46,545 bases of DNA from Oscillatoriales cyanobacterium Centralia_MAG_596 (GTDB lineage: Bacteria; Cyanobacteriota; Cyanobacteriia; Leptolyngbyales; Leptolyngbyaceae). Of this stretch, positions 2,824-13,941 are shown piece after piece. The DNA lies in NCBI GenBank assembly GCA_021323955.1, contig JAJPKC010000311.1:1-46545 (forward strand), in the 5' to 3' direction. The notes below the pieces were generated by a model. That model was not told the DNA's origin. It searched no databases and worked only from the letters and a program-made list of their open reading frames with translations. The translations under genes and the position numbers were made by a program. Position 1 is the stretch's first letter, and every line of letters begins with the position of its first letter.

Positions 2824-4257
2824 ATGGCAGAAAAATGGGCGATCGTCATTGGCATCAGTCAGTATGAGCGTCTGCAATCCCTCCAATATGCAGAACGTGA
2901 TGCTCAGTTGGTGCGAGATTTCTTGGTAAAAGAGGCCAAGTTTGATCAGGTTTACTACTTTTCCGATCGATCACCCGAAATTGTGCTGGACGGGGTGACG
3001 ATCTTAACGCAGCCTACGGTGGCCAATCTCTGGCGATTTTTTGAGCTGCGGTTTGCGACCCCTTTTCTCAAGCAGGGCGATACACTCTGGCTGTTTTTCA
3101 GCGGCTACGGTTTGCAGTATGCCGACTCAGACTATCTCATGCCCAGTGATGGCGAACCGGAGGCGGCCGACATAACCGCTTTCACAATCGATGCCGTTGC
3201 CGACTGTCTCTGTCGCAGTGGGGCCGACAGTCCTGTGTTGTTTCTCGACGCCTGCCGTACCGACGACCAGAAGTTTGGGCAGGGTTTTGGAACCGATCCA
3301 ACGGGGGTCGTCAGCATTTTTTCGGCGGACTTTGGTGAAGTGACCCAAGAAATTGAGGCGATGCAGCAGGGGACATTCGCCCACGTCCTGGTTGAGGGGG
3401 TACGGTGGGAAAGCCGTCAGTCAAACCCAACCATAGCGCACCTATTTGAATACCTACGCGATCGCGTCCCCCAGATCAACCTGCACCACGGCAAACCACC
3501 ACAGACGCCCCGGATGAGTGCAAATGCCGCGATCGACCCTGAGGCAATTCCCGTGCCCAGGGCGATCGATCGCCGCCAATCCCAACCCAAAGTCCGGCTT
3601 TCGCCGCCCGTCCCGCCAACCGTAGCAGCACCCAAGCCTGCCGCCGTGATGCCGCAATCGGTGATGCGTCGGAGACTGGTAGAGGGACTGGCAGGAGTGG
3701 CAATTCTGGCGCTCGGGTTTGCTGGCATATCTGCCTATTGGGAGGTCACCAGTCTCGATTGGGGTGGCATCCTCCGCTCGGCCCAGCTTGCCCTGAGCGG
3801 CGCACCGCCGTCGTCGAGTGCCTCGACCAAACCCCTCACAGGCACGGCATCACTCCAGGCTGCGTCTAGCTCCAGAGATCGCGATAATTTTTATCAACGT
3901 CTGCCAAAGACGGGAACGTATACGGCTACGACGGGACGTTCGGGGGAGTCGTATCGCGAAATTAGCAGTGGTGCCGGACGGTTTTGCATCAAAATTGTCA
4001 ATACCCCTACTACGCCATCCACGGGCTACCAGCAGATTATTGTTAGCAGCCTCGCCTTTCGTGAGAATGGCATCTACATCGACGCCACCCGCGAACGGCT
4101 GACGGTGGATGGCACGTTTACCGAAATTACGGACAGCAAGAATACCTGGCAATGGCTGAGTGCCGATGTCGATCGCAGCGGACTCGTAGCCGAATGTTTA
4201 GCCGCTCCTGGGAGCTATATCCGGCAAGTAAAGGGGGGAAAAGTAAACCCCAGCTAA
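2824..4257 (+). CDS. Caspase-fold (orthocaspase-like) protein with His-to-Tyr substitution, membrane-anchored
   Basis: Residues 1-240 form a caspase-like domain, starting WAIVIGISQY as in C14/metacaspase proteins. The first catalytic position, normally SGHG, reads SGYG (Tyr95), while the Cys strand LFLDACR keeps Cys144. The His-Cys dyad is therefore half lost, and protease activity is doubtful. Pseudo-orthocaspases with Tyr at this position are, to my knowledge, described in cyanobacteria. A proline-rich linker (about 250-280) leads to one transmembrane helix (about 286-305). A C-terminal domain of about 170 residues, which I do not recognise, would lie across the membrane. The ATG at 2824 sits right before the first strand. 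It converges on the malic enzyme gene. Likely role: a regulatory or scaffold relative of the active caspase at 9342-12269. Confidence 0.85.
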   Translation: MAEKWAIVIGISQYERLQSLQYAERDAQLVRDFLVKEAKFDQVYYFSDRSPEIVLDGVTILTQPTVANLWRFFELRFATPFLKQGDTLWLFFSGYGLQYADSDYLMPSDGEPEAADITAFTIDAVADCLCRSGADSPVLFLDACRTDDQKFGQGFGTDPTGVVSIFSADFGEVTQEIEAMQQGTFAHVLVEGVRWESRQSNPTIAHLFEYLRDRVPQINLHHGKPPQTPRMSANAAIDPEAIPVPRAIDRRQSQPKVRLSPPVPPTVAAPKPAAVMPQSVMRRRLVEGLAGVAILALGFAGISAYWEVTSLDWGGILRSAQLALSGAPPSSSASTKPLTGTASLQAASSSRDRDNFYQRLPKTGTYTATTGRSGESYREISSGAGRFCIKIVNTPTTPSTGYQQIIVSSLAFRENGIYIDATRERLTVDGTFTEITDSKNTWQWLSADVDRSGLVAECLAAPGSYIRQVKGGKVNPS

Positions 4258-6471: not shown

Positions 6472-6555
6472 AAACTGGCACAATACCCATTTTGTGTGGG
6501 CTTGTCACAGCAAAAATCTCGTATTATTCTGCTGGAGCTTTATAAAGGGTGTGCA

Positions 6556-8022
6556 ATGCTCAAGCGAATTCCAGGCATTAAGCCTTTGGTGATGACGGCA
6601 GTGTTAATTGGGTCGAACTTTATACCACTACAAGCAATCGCTAACGATAATAAAGTTTTTGTTCTACCGAAGAACGATCTATTCCAAATCTCGACTCGAA
6701 AAGGCTTAAATTGGGCAGCTAATGAATGGCCTTACAACGCAACAATTGTCATTGAGGAAGGTGGACAACAGGTTGGCGAGGCTGTTTTAGACCGTCAGGG
6801 TTACGACTTTACAAATGAGTCTGATCCAAGCTTGCTCCGTGTTGTTATTAAAGCTCCATTTTCCAGTCCCGCACCCAATCGATTAGTTGCAGTTTCTACA
6901 TGGAGTAGCCGGACAGAGGGCTGCTTTATGGAGTTATTAATCCAGGTTTCGCTACCAACGAGTTTAAGTGGAATTAATGGACGTGCTCTGGCTCCCTATT
7001 TAGTTCCGGCACGGGTTCAGGTTGATCTGGGAAAAGAAGTGATCACTCTACAACCTAAACCAGGATCTGAAGCAAGGTATAGCGATCCTATTCCTTACGA
7101 ATACTACAACATTGCTAAAGGACAATATATTAGTGGATTTTGGCATCAAGCACGTAATGAGTTTGTCGTTACGTCTAAGCAGGCAAAGATGCTTCTCGAT
7201 ACCCCTCCCGGAAAAGCTCGAGTCATTCTTGCTTTTCCAAACGATCTGTACAAAACCTATGCTTATCCGATTGGAGAAGGAACTACAAAACGCTGGAAAG
7301 AGGTCTTCGGTTTTAATGATGATTGCAAAGCCAACTCTCCTTCAAGACCACTGCCTCCAGATCTGGTAACCCAAGCGAAGTGGACACCACCTAAGGGATA
7401 TTACTATCCGCCTGATGCGGAATTTAAAGAAGCTGAAACAGACGCTAAATCGCTAATGAAGACAGAAGTTAAATTGACCGCTGATGAGCGTAAACAACGG
7501 TATGCTTTTCAGCAGAGCTGGTCTAAGAAAAACGTTCTTTGGCGTTATCTCGGTAGTTGGTCGATCGACAAAAGCAACTTTTATATTTTTCCGGCTACCA
7601 AAAACAGCCAGGCAGCTTGTGTCGTTACAGAACGGCAAAGTAAACCGGATGTCTTTGAAGGATATGTTTACAACACAGCCAGTCCCAGAGAGATGCAGTA
7701 TCATAAACCGAGAGACAAAGATATTAGTGGACTTTATTGGCGAGATCAGCAGGACGTTTTGTTTGGGAAAGATACTGGACCTGGCAGGGTTTATCCAGTT
7801 TTTGCCAGTCAAAAGTCGATCACTATTTCAACAGATATGAAAGCAGATTTCTATCGCTTGGGTTGCCCCACTGCGTTCATTCCAGCATCAAAGTTTGTTC
7901 CATCTCAAGAGCAGACATCTTCTCAAGAGCGACGCGTAGTGAACCCATTGAGCCAGATCGCTCCTCGGCTAAGTTTTTCGCTTGCCCTATTACTACAGAA
8001 TTTTGCACATCGTAAACTCTAA
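6556..8022 (+). CDS. Unrecognised exported protein
   Basis: I do not recognise this family. The ORF track begins at a GTG (6496), but the ATG at 6556 is better. It is preceded by an AAGGGTG-type ribosome site and starts a clear signal peptide (MLKRIPGIKPLV, then a hydrophobic core ending near LQAIANDN). The mature part, about 460 residues, is rich in aromatic residues and predicted strand (repeated W-x-Y, GYYYPPD). It has scattered cysteines that could pair in the periplasm. A second hydrophobic patch (LSFSLALLLQ) lies near the C-terminus. Codons are visibly more AT-rich and HIP1 sites scarcer than in flanking housekeeping genes. The stop is 7 bases before the next ATG, so it forms an operon with the TPR gene. 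Confidence 0.65.
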   Translation: MLKRIPGIKPLVMTAVLIGSNFIPLQAIANDNKVFVLPKNDLFQISTRKGLNWAANEWPYNATIVIEEGGQQVGEAVLDRQGYDFTNESDPSLLRVVIKAPFSSPAPNRLVAVSTWSSRTEGCFMELLIQVSLPTSLSGINGRALAPYLVPARVQVDLGKEVITLQPKPGSEARYSDPIPYEYYNIAKGQYISGFWHQARNEFVVTSKQAKMLLDTPPGKARVILAFPNDLYKTYAYPIGEGTTKRWKEVFGFNDDCKANSPSRPLPPDLVTQAKWTPPKGYYYPPDAEFKEAETDAKSLMKTEVKLTADERKQRYAFQQSWSKKNVLWRYLGSWSIDKSNFYIFPATKNSQAACVVTERQSKPDVFEGYVYNTASPREMQYHKPRDKDISGLYWRDQQDVLFGKDTGPGRVYPVFASQKSITISTDMKADFYRLGCPTAFIPASKFVPSQEQTSSQERRVVNPLSQIAPRLSFSLALLLQNFAHRKL

Positions 8023-8029
8023 AATTCTG

Positions 8030-9229
8030 ATGAAACCAGTCACGTTAGCATTTCATACACTGCTTCAGTTAGCTGTTGTAGAACGTGTTTTGAATTTGTC
8101 GAGTGTCGCGCTGCCTGTCTCGTTAAATGGAGTAGGTGTGGTTAATTCTGGTTCATTGTTTTCCAGATCAACGTTGGTTGCTCAATCGCGTGAAGCAATC
8201 GCAGCGCTCAAGCAGGGTCGCGAACTGTATCAGCAATATAACTATGACGCCGCTCTGAGATCTTTTGAACAAGTAACTAAGCAAGACCCAGACTTTGCTG
8301 ATGCCTGGTATTGGCAGGGTATGACTCTGTACAATCAGCGCGACTATCAAAACGCGATCGTCTCCTTCAAAAGAGCGACCCAAATCGATGCTAAAAATCC
8401 AATCTTTTGGAAAGCGCGAGGGGATGCGATGAATGCTTTAGCACAATATACGCCTGAGCAAGATACCGCAATTGAGCGATATGATCTTGCCGTTGATGCT
8501 TACGATCGTGCCCTAAAATTCATGCCCGCTAATTCCATAAATGAACAGGCTGCAACATGGATGGGGCGTAGTGAATCGCTTTTTGCTCAAGGTAATTTAC
8601 TGGCTAGTCAGCAAAATCCTGTAGCCGCGTCACAAAAGTACCAAGAAGCCACAACTTCCTACAATGAGGTGATAAAGCTAGCAGCACTAACCAATGATAT
8701 AAATCAACAAGTTGATGCCCTATGGCAGCAGGGTGAAGCATATAGGAGAATCGCTGTCTATGGAGAAGAATCGAATAAGCAAACCTCTTATAGGGATGCT
8801 CTTAGCTCTTTTGATAGAGCCATTCAACTTAAATCAGATTTTTCTGATTGTTGGTACCGACGTGGTCGAGTCCTGGAAGAACTAAATCAACTAAAGGAAG
8901 CGTTGAATTCTTACGGTCAAGCAATACATATTGACCCAGAATTTGCAGAAGCTTTGCATTGGCAAGGAAAGCTCCTAGCTAAGTTAAAACGTTTTGAAGC
9001 AGCATTTGACTCGTTTGACAGAGCGACGAAGGGAACTATTCGGAGCGATTGGGCACTGGAAACAAAGCTAAATCCAGCTGAAATCTGGTATGGCCGTGGT
9101 TTAGCACTTTATCAGTTAAAACGTTATGAGCAGGCAGTCAGGTCATTTGATCAAGCAATTAAACTCAAGCCTGATTTCCCAGATGCACAAAAATATCGTA
9201 GCTATGCCCAGGACCAGTTAAATCGGTAA
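8030..9229 (+). CDS. Exported tetratricopeptide-repeat protein
   Basis: The ORF track starts at a TTG (7982), but the ATG at 8030 directly begins a hydrophobic N-terminal segment (LAFHTLLQLAVVERVL), so I use it (399 residues). After a probable export signal or anchor, TPR units are clear: ALRSFEQVTKQDPDFADAWY, then further copies near DYQNAIVSFKRATQID, ALSSFDRAIQLK, ALNSYGQAIHIDPEFAEAL and AVRSFDQAIKLKPDF. TPRs bind other proteins, so this is an adaptor rather than an enzyme. It lies 7 bases after the unknown exported protein and shares its AT-rich composition, so both are likely made together and act in the periplasm. A hairpin follows and may end transcription from both directions. Confidence 0.8.
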   Translation: MKPVTLAFHTLLQLAVVERVLNLSSVALPVSLNGVGVVNSGSLFSRSTLVAQSREAIAALKQGRELYQQYNYDAALRSFEQVTKQDPDFADAWYWQGMTLYNQRDYQNAIVSFKRATQIDAKNPIFWKARGDAMNALAQYTPEQDTAIERYDLAVDAYDRALKFMPANSINEQAATWMGRSESLFAQGNLLASQQNPVAASQKYQEATTSYNEVIKLAALTNDINQQVDALWQQGEAYRRIAVYGEESNKQTSYRDALSSFDRAIQLKSDFSDCWYRRGRVLEELNQLKEALNSYGQAIHIDPEFAEALHWQGKLLAKLKRFEAAFDSFDRATKGTIRSDWALETKLNPAEIWYGRGLALYQLKRYEQAVRSFDQAIKLKPDFPDAQKYRSYAQDQLNR

Positions 9230-9269
9230 TTAGGATCGCGAATTAAATAATCTGTAAATCTGAGATTTG

Positions 9270-9298
9270 GTCGGGACACGGCATTGTCATGTCCCGAC
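9270..9298. terminator. Hairpin between convergent TPR and caspase genes
   Basis: GTCGGGACA (9270-9278) and TGTCCCGAC (9290-9298) form a perfect 9-base stem with an 11-base loop, centred between the two convergent stop codons. A bidirectional terminator is the simplest reading. There is no long T-run on either side, so termination strength is uncertain. Confidence 0.6.
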
Positions 9299-9341
9299 GC
9301 AGAGAATTGCACCTTAATAAATCTGTGATCGTTGAACACAA

Positions 9342-12269
9342 CTACTGATCGCCTCCGATGGTGCTAAAGTTAGCTGGGGGCGGTGCAGCACGGACAGCAG
9401 GCGTTTTATTTGAAGAATCGACACGAACAGAAGGTGGTTCTCCAGAACTCAGAGAACTCGATGAGTTGTCAGGAGATGGGTTTGTTATAGCAACGGGATC
9501 AGGAGGAGGCGCGGCATTAATCGAGGCAAGTTCATCCTCTGCCTTTTGAATAATCGGTTGAGCTTTCTGCTTCCAGTAAGCAGTTGTTGCTTTCTTCGCG
9601 GTATCGTCTGCTAGAGTCCATTTTTTATCGGTTAGTGCCTGGTTCGCTTTAGCTAGAGTTGCCGCGTTATTTGTCCACTCTTGATTCCACTGGCTTATAG
9701 TCTCTTGTGCCTTTTTCCCAGCGGCATTATTTGTTGGAATGATCTTAAGTTCAGCGATCGCCTCATCTTTTTTCCCTGTCTGATACAGCTTCGTTGCTTG
9801 CTGGATTAAGCTTTCTGACCATGTATTAATAGCATCCTGTGCTAGGTGCCCGTATCGATCAGTATCATCAGGAATTTGAGCCGCAAGCGCGATCGCGTCT
9901 TGAAACTTGCTTTTTCCTGCAAAATCTTTTGCTTTATAGAAGCGACAGGCGTTTAGATGCGCTTGAGCATCCTTGAAGAACCGAAAGTTTGACGGTAAGC
10001 CTTGCGCTTGGGTGATGCACTGGTCGTACTGATGCCCTGAATCCAGGGTAGCAATCTGAGTGAGCGTGGCTCGGTCAGTTTGTTCTTCATACTGGTTCCA
10101 AAAATACCAGCCCCCGATCGCGCTGGCTGTCAGTACTGAAGCACCCGCTATTCTCTGCAACTGATGATGATGAGAGGCGAAAAAAGCGGATAAGCGTGCG
10201 ATCGCTGTTTGCACCAACGGAGTGCCAGGGATCAGTCGCGATCGTGTTGGGATGCTTGCTGGCAGGACATCAAGAAAATTGGCGATCGCCAACGGCTTTC
10301 GCTTTACTAGGGGCTGAGCAGGGTTCCAGGTGCTGATAACCTCTTCTTCAACCCGAATCGCGCTGGCATCATCCAGATTCAGCTTCCGTTGCAGGTTTCG
10401 TAGTCTGTTACGAGTTTGTGGACTGAACGGTATCCCAAATCGCTCAAGCACCTCGTTCAACATCTGCTTATACTTCACAAGCTTTTGGTAGTGTTGCTCC
10501 TGTCTGGCAATCAAGCGGGTTTTGCTGGGTGCAATATCGTCAGCCGTCAGCCCTAGTTGCTGTTGCGATTGCTGTAGACGTAGCAACTGATCCGCAGCGA
10601 GTGGATAGGTTTGAGCTAGCGCATCCTCTAACGCCTGCTCGTACTGCCGAAGTTTCTGCTGATGGGTTCCAATCTGAGCCGTTACGAGTGCAGCAATTTC
10701 AGCTATATCCTTTTGATCCAAGTTCAGGGATTGTGCTAACTGCTCAAGGCGATTACAGGTTGATTGAGATGGCAGATGTTTACGCTGCGTTGCTTCTACC
10801 CATGCTTGCTCATACTGTTGAAGCTGTTGCTGATAAGCATCGATCTGGCTAGTGATATGAGAAAGAATCGGGGTAATATCGCGATCGAGCAACCCTAGCT
10901 CCTGCTGTTTGCGGTGTAGCTCGTGCCGTTGTAAATCATTGAGAGGATAACGATTTTGAGTGAAGCCAGTTAGTGCTTCTCTGTATTGCTGCAACCGTAA
11001 CCAGTAAAGCTCTGCTTCAGCGATGACACGACTTTGAGTTGAAGCAATATCATTTGTGGTCAGTTCTAGCTGCTGCTGAAGCTGTTGTAACTGGGTTTGT
11101 GCGACTACGCTGAGTGGGTATTCTTGGCGTGTTGCTTCTATCAGCGCCCGCTCGTACTGCTGTAACTTTTGTTGCTGTAGCCCTAAGCGAGTTGTAACAC
11201 GTAATTCGATCTCTGAGACAACTTGTGGGTCTAGCCTCAGTCTTTGCTGTAACTGCTTCAAATTGCTGAGCGTTTTGCCATTCAAAGTGCTTTCACGCCG
11301 AATGGCGTTAGCAAACGCTTGCTCATATCTCTGACATGCCGCCTCAAACTCTCGACGATAGGGTTCAAGAACTTTAGCTTCAATCTCTTTTGCTTCAGCT
11401 TCCGAGAGCCCTAAACTAATTCGACGTTCTTCTAACTCCCACCGCCAGAACTCGGACACTTCACCGCGATCAATGTATTCCGGTTGGATGGCTTTGCGAT
11501 ATTCTGCTTCAGGATGAATCGGAACTTTAGCCAGTCGAATGCTGAAACTGTCCTCTCCACTGGTATAGATTTCGGGACTCATTCCAGATTGACTTTCTCG
11601 AACCTTCGTACCGGCATAACCATGCAATTCACCAACCGACACAAACCCATCATCATCTTGATCAGCCGCACCTTTGATCCCCTCGATTAAGTAGCGAGTG
11701 TAAACCGATAAGTCGGCTTTTTTATGCTCAAAGGAATACTGAACTGCGGTAGAGGAAGTTAAAATTGCTCGTCCTTCTCCACCCAGTTGGGCTCGGATAT
11801 CTACTGGTGATTGGCTATCTCTGAATAGCTCTTTTGCAAAAGCACCACTAAAGCAACAGTCCAAAATAATGACTTTTCGTTTCGATCGACTCCTGTTCAT
11901 GTGGGTATGAACAAAGTTAGCGGCTACAGCGGTGTAGTCCAGTAGCTCGCCGTCCTCTAAACTTTTGCAGGTTTCCTTTGTTGCAAAGAAAAACTTTGTG
12001 CTGTCGTGCTTGTCCTTGATACCGTGTCCTGAAAAGAAGAACAGCACCAGATCGTCTCTCTGCCGATTTGCAAATAGCCGGTAAACCGCAGCTTCCATCT
12101 CAAATCGCTTTGGATTTTTCAACACTGTCACGTCGCTGGCGGCAAATCCACCGATATCAGGATGCTGCAATACATCTCGCATTGCCTCTACGTCCCTTAC
12201 CGCACATGGAAGTGGACTCAATTCAGTCTCGTACTCACTCACTCCAATGAGCAGCGCTATTTTTGCCAT
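9342..12269 (-). CDS. Membrane-anchored caspase-family protease with EF-hand-like loop and 57-residue helical repeats
   Basis: This is a 975-residue protein in several parts. Residues 1-250 form a caspase (C14/orthocaspase) domain beginning IALLIGVSEYETELSPL. Both catalytic elements are intact: FFFSGHG (His82) and ILDCCFSG (Cys139). DQDDDGFVSVGE (203-214) fits the Ca2+-binding EF-hand loop spacing, and metacaspases are often calcium-activated. Residues 290-648 carry Q-rich amphipathic helices repeating at exactly 57 residues. A Pro/Arg linker leads to one transmembrane helix (about 707-724). A C-terminal segment of helical TPR-like repeats (750-910) and a disordered Ser/Pro tail follow. With an N-in orientation the protease faces the cytoplasm and the tail the periplasm or lumen. 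The ATG at 12269 lies just before the first strand. It shares a strand with the TIR and small membrane genes. Confidence 0.9.
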   Translation of the reverse strand: MAKIALLIGVSEYETELSPLPCAVRDVEAMRDVLQHPDIGGFAASDVTVLKNPKRFEMEAAVYRLFANRQRDDLVLFFFSGHGIKDKHDSTKFFFATKETCKSLEDGELLDYTAVAANFVHTHMNRSRSKRKVIILDCCFSGAFAKELFRDSQSPVDIRAQLGGEGRAILTSSTAVQYSFEHKKADLSVYTRYLIEGIKGAADQDDDGFVSVGELHGYAGTKVRESQSGMSPEIYTSGEDSFSIRLAKVPIHPEAEYRKAIQPEYIDRGEVSEFWRWELEERRISLGLSEAEAKEIEAKVLEPYRREFEAACQRYEQAFANAIRRESTLNGKTLSNLKQLQQRLRLDPQVVSEIELRVTTRLGLQQQKLQQYERALIEATRQEYPLSVVAQTQLQQLQQQLELTTNDIASTQSRVIAEAELYWLRLQQYREALTGFTQNRYPLNDLQRHELHRKQQELGLLDRDITPILSHITSQIDAYQQQLQQYEQAWVEATQRKHLPSQSTCNRLEQLAQSLNLDQKDIAEIAALVTAQIGTHQQKLRQYEQALEDALAQTYPLAADQLLRLQQSQQQLGLTADDIAPSKTRLIARQEQHYQKLVKYKQMLNEVLERFGIPFSPQTRNRLRNLQRKLNLDDASAIRVEEEVISTWNPAQPLVKRKPLAIANFLDVLPASIPTRSRLIPGTPLVQTAIARLSAFFASHHHQLQRIAGASVLTASAIGGWYFWNQYEEQTDRATLTQIATLDSGHQYDQCITQAQGLPSNFRFFKDAQAHLNACRFYKAKDFAGKSKFQDAIALAAQIPDDTDRYGHLAQDAINTWSESLIQQATKLYQTGKKDEAIAELKIIPTNNAAGKKAQETISQWNQEWTNNAATLAKANQALTDKKWTLADDTAKKATTAYWKQKAQPIIQKAEDELASINAAPPPDPVAITNPSPDNSSSSLSSGEPPSVRVDSSNKTPAVRAAPPPANFSTIGGDQ
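10326..11327 (-). repeat. Strictly phased 57-residue (171-base) repeats inside the caspase gene
   Basis: An anchoring tyrosine followed by an A-containing helix recurs at residues 315 (YEQAF), 372 (YERAL), 429 (YREAL), 486 (YEQAW), 543 (YEQAL) and 600 (YKQML). Every interval is 57 residues, with no insertion or deletion. Each unit continues with a Y/H-P-L-like turn, a leucine/glutamine helix (LQQLQQQL type), an acidic turn (DDIA, KDIAEI, RDITPI) and a last helix ending QQKLQQ. The repeats have diverged at sequence level, so this is an old, length-constrained array. The half-unit at about 285-310 suggests it began earlier. Confidence 0.85.
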
Positions 12270-12354
12270 GTAGAATAATCCGCGCTTTAGAGATGCTTAT
12301 CGGCTGAAATTTATTTTATAGTTATTCCCTATCGCAATTTGCCTTATTCGCTCA

Positions 12355-12460
12355 TTAATTTATCAATTGGCATATGGCCCTTCGCAGTCCTTTCGCCACG
12401 TCTAGAAACGCTTCGTTGCGATTTTCCCAGGTCGTGACGGGTCTGGCAATCCTCAGGCAA
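12355..12460 (-). pseudogene. Relic of a second TIR-protein C-terminus
   Basis: Read on the minus strand, these bases encode RPVTTWENRNEAFLDVAKGL followed by a stop at 12355-12357. The intact TIR gene 690 bases away ends with nearly the same peptide (KPVTTWENRDEAFLDVAKGL). The DNA also aligns well over roughly 80 bases (for example tcccaggtcgtgac in both). One extra base relative to the intact gene shifts the frame just upstream of this peptide, and no TIR core remains. It is best read as the tail of a deleted tandem paralogue. The stop codon of the small membrane ORF lies only 5 bases upstream of it. Confidence 0.8.
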
Positions 12461-12464
12461 ATCG

Positions 12465-12698
12465 TTAGTGAATGTTTCGCCGGTAATTGATCTGCCATGA
12501 CCGCTCCAATTGGGCTATACGTCGCTGCCTCAATCGCTGGCAGTAGCGTTGACGAACAAAGATGACGAGCGCACAGACCACAGGCAGTAACAGCACGATC
12601 GCTGTAGAGACGACCGCAGGATCGCTATTTGCTTGTGGTATGGAGCTTGCATCATGGCCGATGGTACGCACAGTAATTCCTAAGTGATTGTTCGCCAT
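12465..12698 (-). CDS. Small single-pass membrane protein, unknown
   Basis: The 77-residue ORF has a short polar N-terminus (MANNHLGITVRTIG), one strong transmembrane helix (VVSTAIVLLLPVVCALVIFV, about 29-48) and a very basic tail (RQRYCQRLRQRR). By the positive-inside rule the tail should be cytoplasmic. A convincing ribosome site (GGAGAAG) lies a few bases before the ATG, unusual among its neighbours and a good reason to believe the gene. I recognise no family. Its stop falls right at the edge of the TIR relic, so its last residues may be new sequence created by the deletion. It sits between the caspase and the TIR-EACC1 gene on the same strand and could anchor or regulate either. Confidence 0.5.
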   Translation of the reverse strand: MANNHLGITVRTIGHDASSIPQANSDPAVVSTAIVLLLPVVCALVIFVRQRYCQRLRQRRIAQLERSWQINYRRNIH

Positions 12699-13047
12699 GA
12701 TGACTTCTCCGGTTGGTTTATAGTCTGGCTGAACAGCGATCAGATACTCTCAGCGATCGCTGCCGCTCGCGGCTTTCCTGGGGCGGTGTAGACATCACGC
12801 TGATCAGAAACCTCAGGGCAAGCCAATTTGTCAGACACCGAACTCAGGCCGGTCTGCTATGCGCTCCTACCATGCCAGAAATGGCGGCTATAATTTACTC
12901 TCTCAGAATAAAATACACATCTGAATAAATGTCATCATTCGTCACAACTGGGTGAATCATTGACTGAGCAACCATGACGAAAGCGCCAGCCTGAAAGTTC
13001 TTGGCGGTTAGCGGATGGTCATCATTCAAGACTGGTCGTTAAGGTAT
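12699..13047. other. Gene-free gap between small membrane ORF and TIR gene
   Basis: Neither strand holds a convincing gene over these 349 bases. The 71-residue plus-strand ORF (12713-12928) has no recognisable features. A short motif, gtcatcattc, occurs twice (about 12930 and 13017). The gap is consistent with decayed DNA left by deletion of the second TIR copy, and should also hold the promoter of the small membrane ORF. Confidence 0.5.
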
Positions 13048-13941
13048 TTACTGCGCGATCGCGGCTCGCAGCCCTTTCGCTACGTCTAAAAACGCCTCAT
13101 CGCGATTCTCCCAGGTCGTGACAGGCTTGGCGTTTTTGGGCAGTGCTTGCAGCTTGCCAAACGGAGCACCCGTCCAATCACAGGGTTTGAGAATAATGGG
13201 GATCACTCTGGCCGCTCCAGCTTCGTGGCGTTTCATGGCCTGGGCCAGCTCAAGGTCATAGCAGTAGTCAGAGGCCAGAAAATTGGCGCTCACCAACAGC
13301 AGAATGACACCAGCAGAATTGAGATGCTCGTCGATTGCGTCGGCCCAATCGCTGCCAGCGGTAATCTCGCGATCATGCCACGCCGCAATGATCCCCTGGC
13401 GCTTCAGGATCGCGAGATGGGTCGCCAGTTCGTCCCGCAGGTCTTCATCCCGGTGAGAGTAAGAAAAAAAGACTTCTACGGGTGCGGTCGGGGTGGGCAA
13501 GCCTGGGGGATTGGCATTGCGGTCAGGCGCAGGAACCGTAACGGGCTGGGAGTCTGCAGCGACTGTATGCATGAGAAATGTCTGTGCGGTCTGAAGGGCA
13601 GCAGCTAACTCGGCCTGATTTCGCGCTTTAACCGTAATTTTTTTGCCCTCAAGTTCCACAGTCAGCTCAAGCGCCGCACTCCCCACGACAGAATCGATCG
13701 CGCCCAAAACGGCGGATGCCTGGGCGGGTGCGACTTGCGCCCTCAATAATCCCGCGAGAAACCCACCAAAGGCTTTGTTCCCAATCGGTGGATGGGGGTC
13801 TGGCACGCGATCGACCCGCTCTACCTCATCAAATTCGCGCAGTTGGCGCAGCAGGTTTTGCGTTTTTGACTCCAATTCTTCGCTATCGAGATCGGGGTCG
13901 ATTACGTTGAAGGTGAGGTAAACGGTTGGTCGGTCGTTCAT
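13048..13941 (-). CDS. TIR-domain protein with N-terminal EACC1-like domain
   Basis: Residues about 155-297 are a bacterial TIR domain: EVFFSYSHRDEDLRDELATH, a box with WHDREITAGSDW, and FLASDYCYDLELAQAMKRHE. Glu231 in that last box is at the usual position of the NADase glutamate of TIR enzymes, so NAD+ cleavage is plausible. The ending PFGKLQALPKNAKPVTTW is typical of effector-type bacterial TIRs. Residues 5-123 are strand-helix-strand with a Gly/Ala-rich hydrophobic hairpin (GGFLAGLL) and ELTVELEGKKITVKARN. This resembles EACC1, the effector-associated component of predicted bacterial conflict systems, here fused rather than encoded separately. A Pro-rich linker joins the halves. The ATG at 13941 has no obvious ribosome site. 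A C-terminal relic of a paralogue lies downstream. Confidence 0.85.
   Translation of the reverse strand: MNDRPTVYLTFNVIDPDLDSEELESKTQNLLRQLREFDEVERVDRVPDPHPPIGNKAFGGFLAGLLRAQVAPAQASAVLGAIDSVVGSAALELTVELEGKKITVKARNQAELAAALQTAQTFLMHTVAADSQPVTVPAPDRNANPPGLPTPTAPVEVFFSYSHRDEDLRDELATHLAILKRQGIIAAWHDREITAGSDWADAIDEHLNSAGVILLLVSANFLASDYCYDLELAQAMKRHEAGAARVIPIILKPCDWTGAPFGKLQALPKNAKPVTTWENRDEAFLDVAKGLRAAIAQ

What the first reader, a model, noticed from the sequence alone, without database searches (positions are those of the whole stretch)
9342..13941. Caspase plus EACC1-TIR locus: candidate immune or suicide module
Seen: an intact-dyad caspase with an EF-hand-like loop, helical repeats and one membrane helix; a small single-pass membrane protein; a TIR protein with an EACC1-like N-terminal domain and an intact candidate NADase Glu. 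All are on one strand within about 4.6 kb. Known: TIR, caspase and EACC1 domains recur as effectors and fixed components of predicted bacterial conflict systems. Inference: they form one signalling device in which the TIR (NAD+ depletion or signal making) and the caspase (proteolysis) act as effectors, and Ca2+ or membrane damage is the input. I know of no described system with this exact architecture.
Basis: partly seen in the sequence, partly recalled or inferred. Interest (0 to 1): 0.75.

Follow-up and report, generated by a model that had tools for sequence, protein, structure and literature searches.

The report
EACC1-TIR gene beside receptor-like caspase
In a cyanobacterium, a predicted NAD+-destroying TIR protein carries the adaptor domain (EACC1) that normally sits as a separate gene next to bacterial caspases, and it now lies beside such a caspase that arrived on an acquired 6.5 kb DNA insert; the two look like parts of a known kind of predicted immune or suicide system in a new arrangement, but that they work together is not proven.

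Summary
9342-12269(-) is an intact caspase (H82/C139, EF-hand loop 203-214, 57-residue helical repeats, membrane helix). 13048-13941(-) is a TIR protein with a disordered linker and a conserved candidate Glu231. Its N-terminus is EACC1, shown through relatives: 10 of 29 homologues hit Pfam EACC1. Standalone homologues sit directly 5' of related caspases in 70 of 74 cyanobacterial loci, the EACC1-caspase 'System 4' of Kaur 2020, in a branch Pfam misses.

The reading as one TIR+caspase device is only partly supported. TIR never occurs in those 74 loci. EACC1-TIR occurs alone at the same place in two congeners, and in Oculatella, without caspase. The caspase arrived with two more genes as a low-GC 6.5 kb insert found only here. 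A TIR 3'-end remnant (12352-12456) abuts it. The 77-aa 'membrane protein' has no support as a gene.

New: the caspase's C-terminal membrane/TPR-like module is shared with Ser/Thr receptor kinases, two of which are followed by a homologue of the insert's secreted 508-aa protein. This suggests a transmembrane sensor caspase.

Best reading: a variant EACC1-caspase system whose EACC1 partner carries a TIR NADase. Main rival: chance juxtaposition of two modules.

The parts
13561..13941 (-). EACC1 domain, residues 1-127 of the EACC1-TIR protein
   Evidence: 29-row family alignment A1; 10 of 29 members match PF19953; AlphaFold model b-a-b-b-a-b-b-a, mean pLDDT 80-89
13051..13482 (-). TIR domain, residues 154-297; candidate catalytic Glu231 at 13249-13251
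   Evidence: TIR_2 9.8e-18; PADLOC ThsB1 2e-62; PDB TIR folds; Glu present in all near relatives
13048..13941 (-). EACC1-TIR gene, 297 aa, purifying selection against congeners (dN/dS about 0.1)
9342..12269 (-). receptor-like caspase gene, 975 aa
   Evidence: PF00656 6e-22; nests among EACC1-linked caspases, weak support
11520..12269 (-). caspase catalytic domain; H82 (12024-12026), C139 (11853-11855)
11628..11663 (-). EF-hand-like loop DQDDDGFVSVGE, residues 203-214
   Evidence: pattern present in 53 of 69 related caspases
10200..11507 (-). helical region with 57-residue repeats, residues about 255-690
   Evidence: self-identity 31% at offset 57; no Pfam match
10089..10151 (-). putative membrane helix IAGASVLTASAIGGWYFWNQY, residues 707-727
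   Evidence: corresponds to clear TM helices of kinases in L194, L195
9555..10067 (-). C-terminal TPR-like module shared with Ser/Thr kinases
   Evidence: 35% identity over residues 707-966, E 1e-36 to 1e-37
12352..12456 (-). remnant of a second TIR 3' end just upstream of the caspase
   Evidence: 85% aa identity over 27 residues, E 9e-13; 96-nt direct repeat, 75%
12465..12698 (-). 77-aa ORF with one hydrophobic stretch; no support as a gene
   Evidence: no homologue found
6496..8022 (+). protein of up to 508 aa, probably secreted (likely start ATG 6556, signal-peptide-like N-terminus); homologues lie directly 3' of two kinases that share the caspase's C-terminal module
7982..9229 (+). TPR protein, 415 aa; TPR homologues neighbour two other proteins with the C-terminal module (L215, L225)
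6472..13047 (.). 6.5 kb insert absent from the same place in congeners, GC about 0.43-0.50 against 0.54-0.57

Best explanation
A variant of the EACC1-caspase two-gene system. EACC1 is the usual small partner of a family of bacterial caspases. In an ancestor of this genus the resident EACC1 was fused to a TIR NADase (shown: fusion, synteny, selection). In this genome a caspase of the EACC1-linked family, without an EACC1 gene of its own, has been inserted right behind it (shown). Inferred: the caspase is a transmembrane receptor whose C-terminal module, with the secreted 508-aa and TPR proteins, senses an envelope event, perhaps gated by Ca2+ at the EF-hand loop. The EACC1 domain docks onto the caspase, so activation clusters or releases the TIR, which destroys NAD+ through Glu231, while the caspase cleaves cell proteins. 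The result is dormancy or death of the infected or damaged cell.
For: EACC1 sits 5' of a caspase in 70 of 74 standalone loci. The window's EACC1-TIR is the only EACC1 found in this genome and it lies 5' of, and on the same strand as, a caspase that nests among EACC1-linked ones, with weak support. A TIR 3'-end remnant directly upstream of the caspase suggests that a TIR gene preceded it before. The catalytic residues of both enzymes are intact. The EACC1-TIR is under purifying selection. The caspase C-terminal module and the 508-aa partner recur together in two kinase loci.
Against: EACC1-TIR stands alone in Stenomitos frigidus, a second congener and Oculatella. The caspase insert is compositionally foreign and unique to this genome. 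The gap is 778 bp against about 10 bp in typical pairs, and no promoter or terminator signal above chance settles co-transcription. Basic residues in the linker, which an Arg/Lys-specific protease would need, are not conserved: one in the window, none in G002 (read by eye).
Confidence: 0.42

Rival explanations
1. Two separate modules brought together by an insertion. EACC1-TIR is an old resident gene that works alone or with EACC1 caspases in trans; the insert is an acquired sensor caspase (caspase, secreted 508-aa protein, TPR protein) that works without it.
For: EACC1-TIR alone at the same place in two congeners and without caspase in Oculatella, decayed in a third congener. Insert has lower GC and GC3 than flanks and EACC1-TIR. 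No TIR in 74 EACC1 loci. Caspases without adjacent EACC1 exist (11 of 68 non-window caspases sampled).
Against: The insert landed exactly behind the genome's only known EACC1 gene, on the strand and side where EACC1 belongs, and it abuts a TIR remnant.
Confidence: 0.38
2. Type IV Thoeris-like signalling: the TIR makes a cyclic ADP-ribose signal that activates the caspase as a protease effector.
For: TIR and caspase on one strand; such a system is known (Rousset 2025, via PMC12847820); the TIR is of a type PADLOC assigns to ThsB.
Against: The conserved partner of this caspase family is EACC1, not TIR; the EACC1-TIR relatives lack a caspase neighbour; no nucleotide-sensing domain was recognised in the caspase. 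I could not compare with the Thoeris caspase sequence itself.
Confidence: 0.1
3. EACC1-TIR is an EACC1-recruited effector for other, unlinked caspases, and the adjacent caspase is irrelevant to it.
For: The second congener (G002) has EACC1-caspase pairs elsewhere, so EACC1-TIR could join them in trans there.
Against: No standalone EACC1 was found in this genome or in Stenomitos frigidus; the adjacent caspase ORF is intact with both catalytic residues.
Confidence: 0.1

Closest known systems
EACC1 two-gene conflict system ('System 4', Kaur et al. 2020 eLife, PMC7159879)
   Same: 5' EACC1 gene, 3' caspase gene with variable C-terminus; the cyanobacterial relatives keep this order in 70 of 74 loci
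   Different: Here EACC1 is fused to TIR, the gap is 778 bp, and the caspase is on a later insert. The paper describes EACC1 as standalone or fused to EAD1/EAD2 and stresses actinobacteria and proteobacteria; this branch is cyanobacterial and below the Pfam cut-off. The model shows no membrane helix in EACC1.
Type IV Thoeris (Rousset et al. 2025 Science 387:510; read only through PMC12847820)
   Same: A TIR NADase and a caspase-like protease as partners
   Different: There the TIR-protease operon is the unit; here TIR and caspase are not conserved neighbours and EACC1 is the link
Cyanobacterial membrane Ser/Thr kinases with a C-terminal TPR-like module (L194, L195)
   Same: Same membrane helix plus C-terminal module, and a homologue of the secreted 508-aa protein next door
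   Different: A kinase in place of caspase plus 57-residue repeats
EACC2 / TRADD-N caspase systems (PMC8195603)
   Same: Constant small domain with caspase, variable C-terminus with membrane segments
   Different: No EACC2 or TRADD-N domain recognised here by the Pfam scan; not tested with dedicated profiles

Membership tests
EACC1 domain family | Sequence match to PF19953 | tested here: inconclusive
   Window domain no hit; 10 of 29 aligned family members hit, best 1.1e-4; one full-length sub-cut-off hit, profile 11-106 of 107, in G008
EACC1 domain family | Single conserved membrane helix with a small-residue patch (Kaur 2020) | tested here: inconclusive
   Gly-rich hydrophobic stretches exist (GGFLAGLL; AVLGAIDSVVGSAALELTV) but the models fold them as a soluble a+b domain; hydropathy maximum 1.57
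EACC1-caspase two-gene system | EACC1 gene 5' of a caspase gene, same strand | tested here: met
   Window order and strand agree; 70 of 74 relatives, though up to 8 of the 74 loci were fetched by their caspase. The window's spacing (778 bp) is atypical
EACC1-caspase two-gene system | Caspase with intact dyad and variable C-terminal region | tested here: met
   H82, C139; repeats, TM, TPR-like module
EACC1-caspase two-gene system | EACC1 standalone or EAD-fused | tested here: not met
   Fused to TIR. Filed as a variant, not a standard member
Type IV Thoeris | TIR and caspase-like protease in one conserved operon | tested here: not met
   0 of 74 standalone EACC1 loci contain TIR; three other EACC1-TIR genes have no caspase
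Type IV Thoeris | N7-cADPR made by TIR activates the protease | not testable with these tools
   Biochemical
TIR NADase | TIR fold and catalytic Glu | tested here: met
   activity itself not testable
Ca2+-dependent caspase/metacaspase | EF-hand-like loop as candidate Ca2+ site | tested here: met
   DxDxDGxxxxxE loop, family-wide; Ca2+ binding and dependence not testable

The most novel reading that the evidence does not exclude
EACC1 is a soluble ferredoxin-like adaptor, not a membrane sensor, that plugs interchangeable effectors or sensors (TIR NADase, Roc-COR GTPase, GUN4) onto a family of caspases with a Ca2+-type loop. At this locus it joins NAD+ destruction and proteolysis under a transmembrane sensor whose ectodomain was exchanged with a receptor kinase together with its secreted partner.
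Probability: 0.25. Interest if true: 0.75.

Novelty: new variant of a known kind. Interest (0 to 1): 0.5.

Why it matters
It reveals a branch of EACC1-caspase systems in about a tenth of sampled cyanobacterial genomes (41 of 386 with the family profile) that the Pfam EACC1 model misses (none of 386 over the cut-off). It also makes the role of EACC1 testable: a protein in which EACC1 carries an enzyme of known chemistry (TIR) allows a direct assay of whether EACC1 recruits effectors to caspases. The kinase-to-caspase exchange of a membrane module with its secreted partner gives a handle on what such caspases sense.

Tried and rejected
EACC1 by Pfam on the window alone: negative; solved through homologues. 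NCBIfam gave only a weak match to an unrelated family, best E 0.013. A real gene at 12465-12698: no homologue. Search for more EACC1-TIR remnant in the 778-bp gap: only the TIR tail is significant. PDB search with the caspase: only weak metacaspase matches to the first 85 residues, so no help with partners. EACC1 fold search: no PDB match better than E 0.0047; ferredoxin-like or dimeric-barrel folds among the top rows. Promoter/terminator scan: not above shuffles. No RNA family or tRNA that would mark an integration site. One search was a search with an arbitrary peptide and carries no information. Linker cleavage as TIR release: linker basic residues not conserved.
Full report
What is there. 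The caspase (9342-12269, minus strand) and TIR protein (13048-13941, minus strand) are real, intact genes. The caspase has the H82/C139 dyad, an EF-hand loop, a helical region with a 57-residue period, a weak membrane helix at 707-727 and a TPR-like C-terminal module. The TIR protein has an N-terminal domain of 127 residues, a disordered linker (about 131-150) and a TIR domain with Glu231 in a position that all its near relatives keep. The AlphaFold model has mean pLDDT 88.6 (pTM 0.57, so the mutual placing of the two domains is not defined), and its PDB matches are TIR domains. Against its orthologues the gene shows dN/dS near 0.1, although dS is close to saturation.

The N-terminal domain is EACC1, by transitivity. 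A search of 115 genomes found relatives in 41, mostly as standalone proteins of about 125-150 aa. Ten of the 29 aligned family members match Pfam EACC1 with E down to 1.1e-4, while the window's own domain does not. [quoted passage not shown] 2020: EACC1 first, caspase second (PMC7159879). Of 74 standalone EACC1 loci, 70 have a caspase within 500 nt downstream on the same strand, usually about 10 nt away. Up to eight of these loci were fetched through their caspase, which slightly inflates the ratio. A profile from these relatives finds the family in 41 of 386 cyanobacterial genomes, whereas PF19953 finds none above its cut-off.

TIR is not a regular partner. None of the 74 loci has a TIR gene in the fetched stretch. 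EACC1-TIR fusions were found in four genomes only: this one, Stenomitos frigidus ULC18 (G001, L048/L136; the identification rests on the matching contig of 93,772 bases), another congener (G002, L049), and Oculatella sp. LEGE 06141 (L137). One origin for all four is not rejected (AU p 0.81). Only in the window does a caspase follow. Other EACC1 fusions are to a Roc-COR GTPase (L144) and to helical repeats plus GUN4 (L145).

History of the locus. Malic enzyme, SRPBCC protein, EACC1-TIR and LmeA-like gene are in this order in two congeners; two others (G003, G006) lack EACC1-TIR; G004 keeps an EACC1 remnant with stop codons. In the window, 6.5 kb lie between the SRPBCC gene and EACC1-TIR: a probably secreted protein of up to 508 aa, a TPR protein, the caspase, and a 778-bp gap. 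GC falls to 0.43-0.50 against 0.54-0.57 around it, and third-position GC is 0.37-0.45 for the inserted genes against 0.58-0.65 for neighbours and 0.61 for EACC1-TIR. The gap contains the last 27-30 codons of a second TIR gene, 85% identical in protein to the resident one and more like it than like any orthologue. Inference: the insert came with a TIR gene ahead of its caspase, or a local duplication made the copy. The 77-aa ORF in the gap has no homologue and probably is not a gene.

The caspase as a sensor (inference from homology). Its residues 707-966 match the membrane helix and C-terminal module of Ser/Thr kinases in G047 and G017 at 35% identity. In both, the next gene is a homologue of the window's 508-aa protein. 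TPR homologues neighbour two other module-bearing proteins (L215, L225). So the three inserted genes probably belong together as an envelope-facing sensor set, with a caspase in the place of a kinase. The caspase's catalytic domain nests among EACC1-linked caspases with weak support.

Mechanism. Shown: domain content, conserved catalytic residues, gene order, insertion. Inferred: EACC1 binds the caspase; a signal through the membrane module activates it; the TIR then consumes NAD+. The chief alternative, chance neighbourhood of two modules, explains the history almost as well and is given nearly equal weight. Type IV Thoeris (TIR signal activating a caspase-like protease; PMC12847820) is the nearest working precedent for a TIR-caspase pair. 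Its defining linkage is absent here, though a similar chemistry cannot be excluded.

On EACC1 itself: Kaur et al. read it as a membrane helix with extensions. The models here show a compact b-a-b-b-a-b-b-a domain with ferredoxin-like resemblances at weak significance. This is a prediction from 29-39 sequences and deserves an experiment.

Verdict: a new variant of a known kind, with a sound observation, a partly supported interpretation and an unproven link between the two enzymes.

Noticed in passing
window 2824-4257 (+): A second caspase gene (477 aa, PF00656 8.6e-16) of another subfamily, 5 kb from the insert's caspase; not followed beyond Pfam.
   Followed up: partly
L012:88-2528, L014:1-2603 (same genome, contigs C548, C562): Two caspase genes each directly preceded by a small gene; the one in L012 encodes a Pepco domain (Pfam 1.4e-26) and the one in L014 is visibly similar: another predicted conflict system in this genome.
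   Followed up: partly
L017/L118 (same genome, contig C349); L105, L109 in congeners: Caspase homologues of this family that lack the catalytic Cys, two of them (L118, L109) also the His, like the pseudo-orthocaspases of the literature.
   Followed up: no
L144:998-4486 (+): EACC1 at the C-terminus of a Roc-COR GTPase, followed by small proteins with a repeated 'LGKYNVNIGEG' motif that look like effector-associated domains.
   Followed up: partly
L145:4146-5603 (+): EACC1-like domain fused to helical repeats resembling the window caspase's 57-residue repeats and to GUN4, without a caspase next door.
   Followed up: partly
L134:4236-4342 and G004:C238:15284-15526: Decayed EACC1 gene with stop codons at the same place in a congener, a sign of gain and loss of this locus.
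   Followed up: yes
L102, L103, L113: A clade of caspases of this family in Stenomitos without adjacent EACC1; what they pair with is unknown.
   Followed up: no
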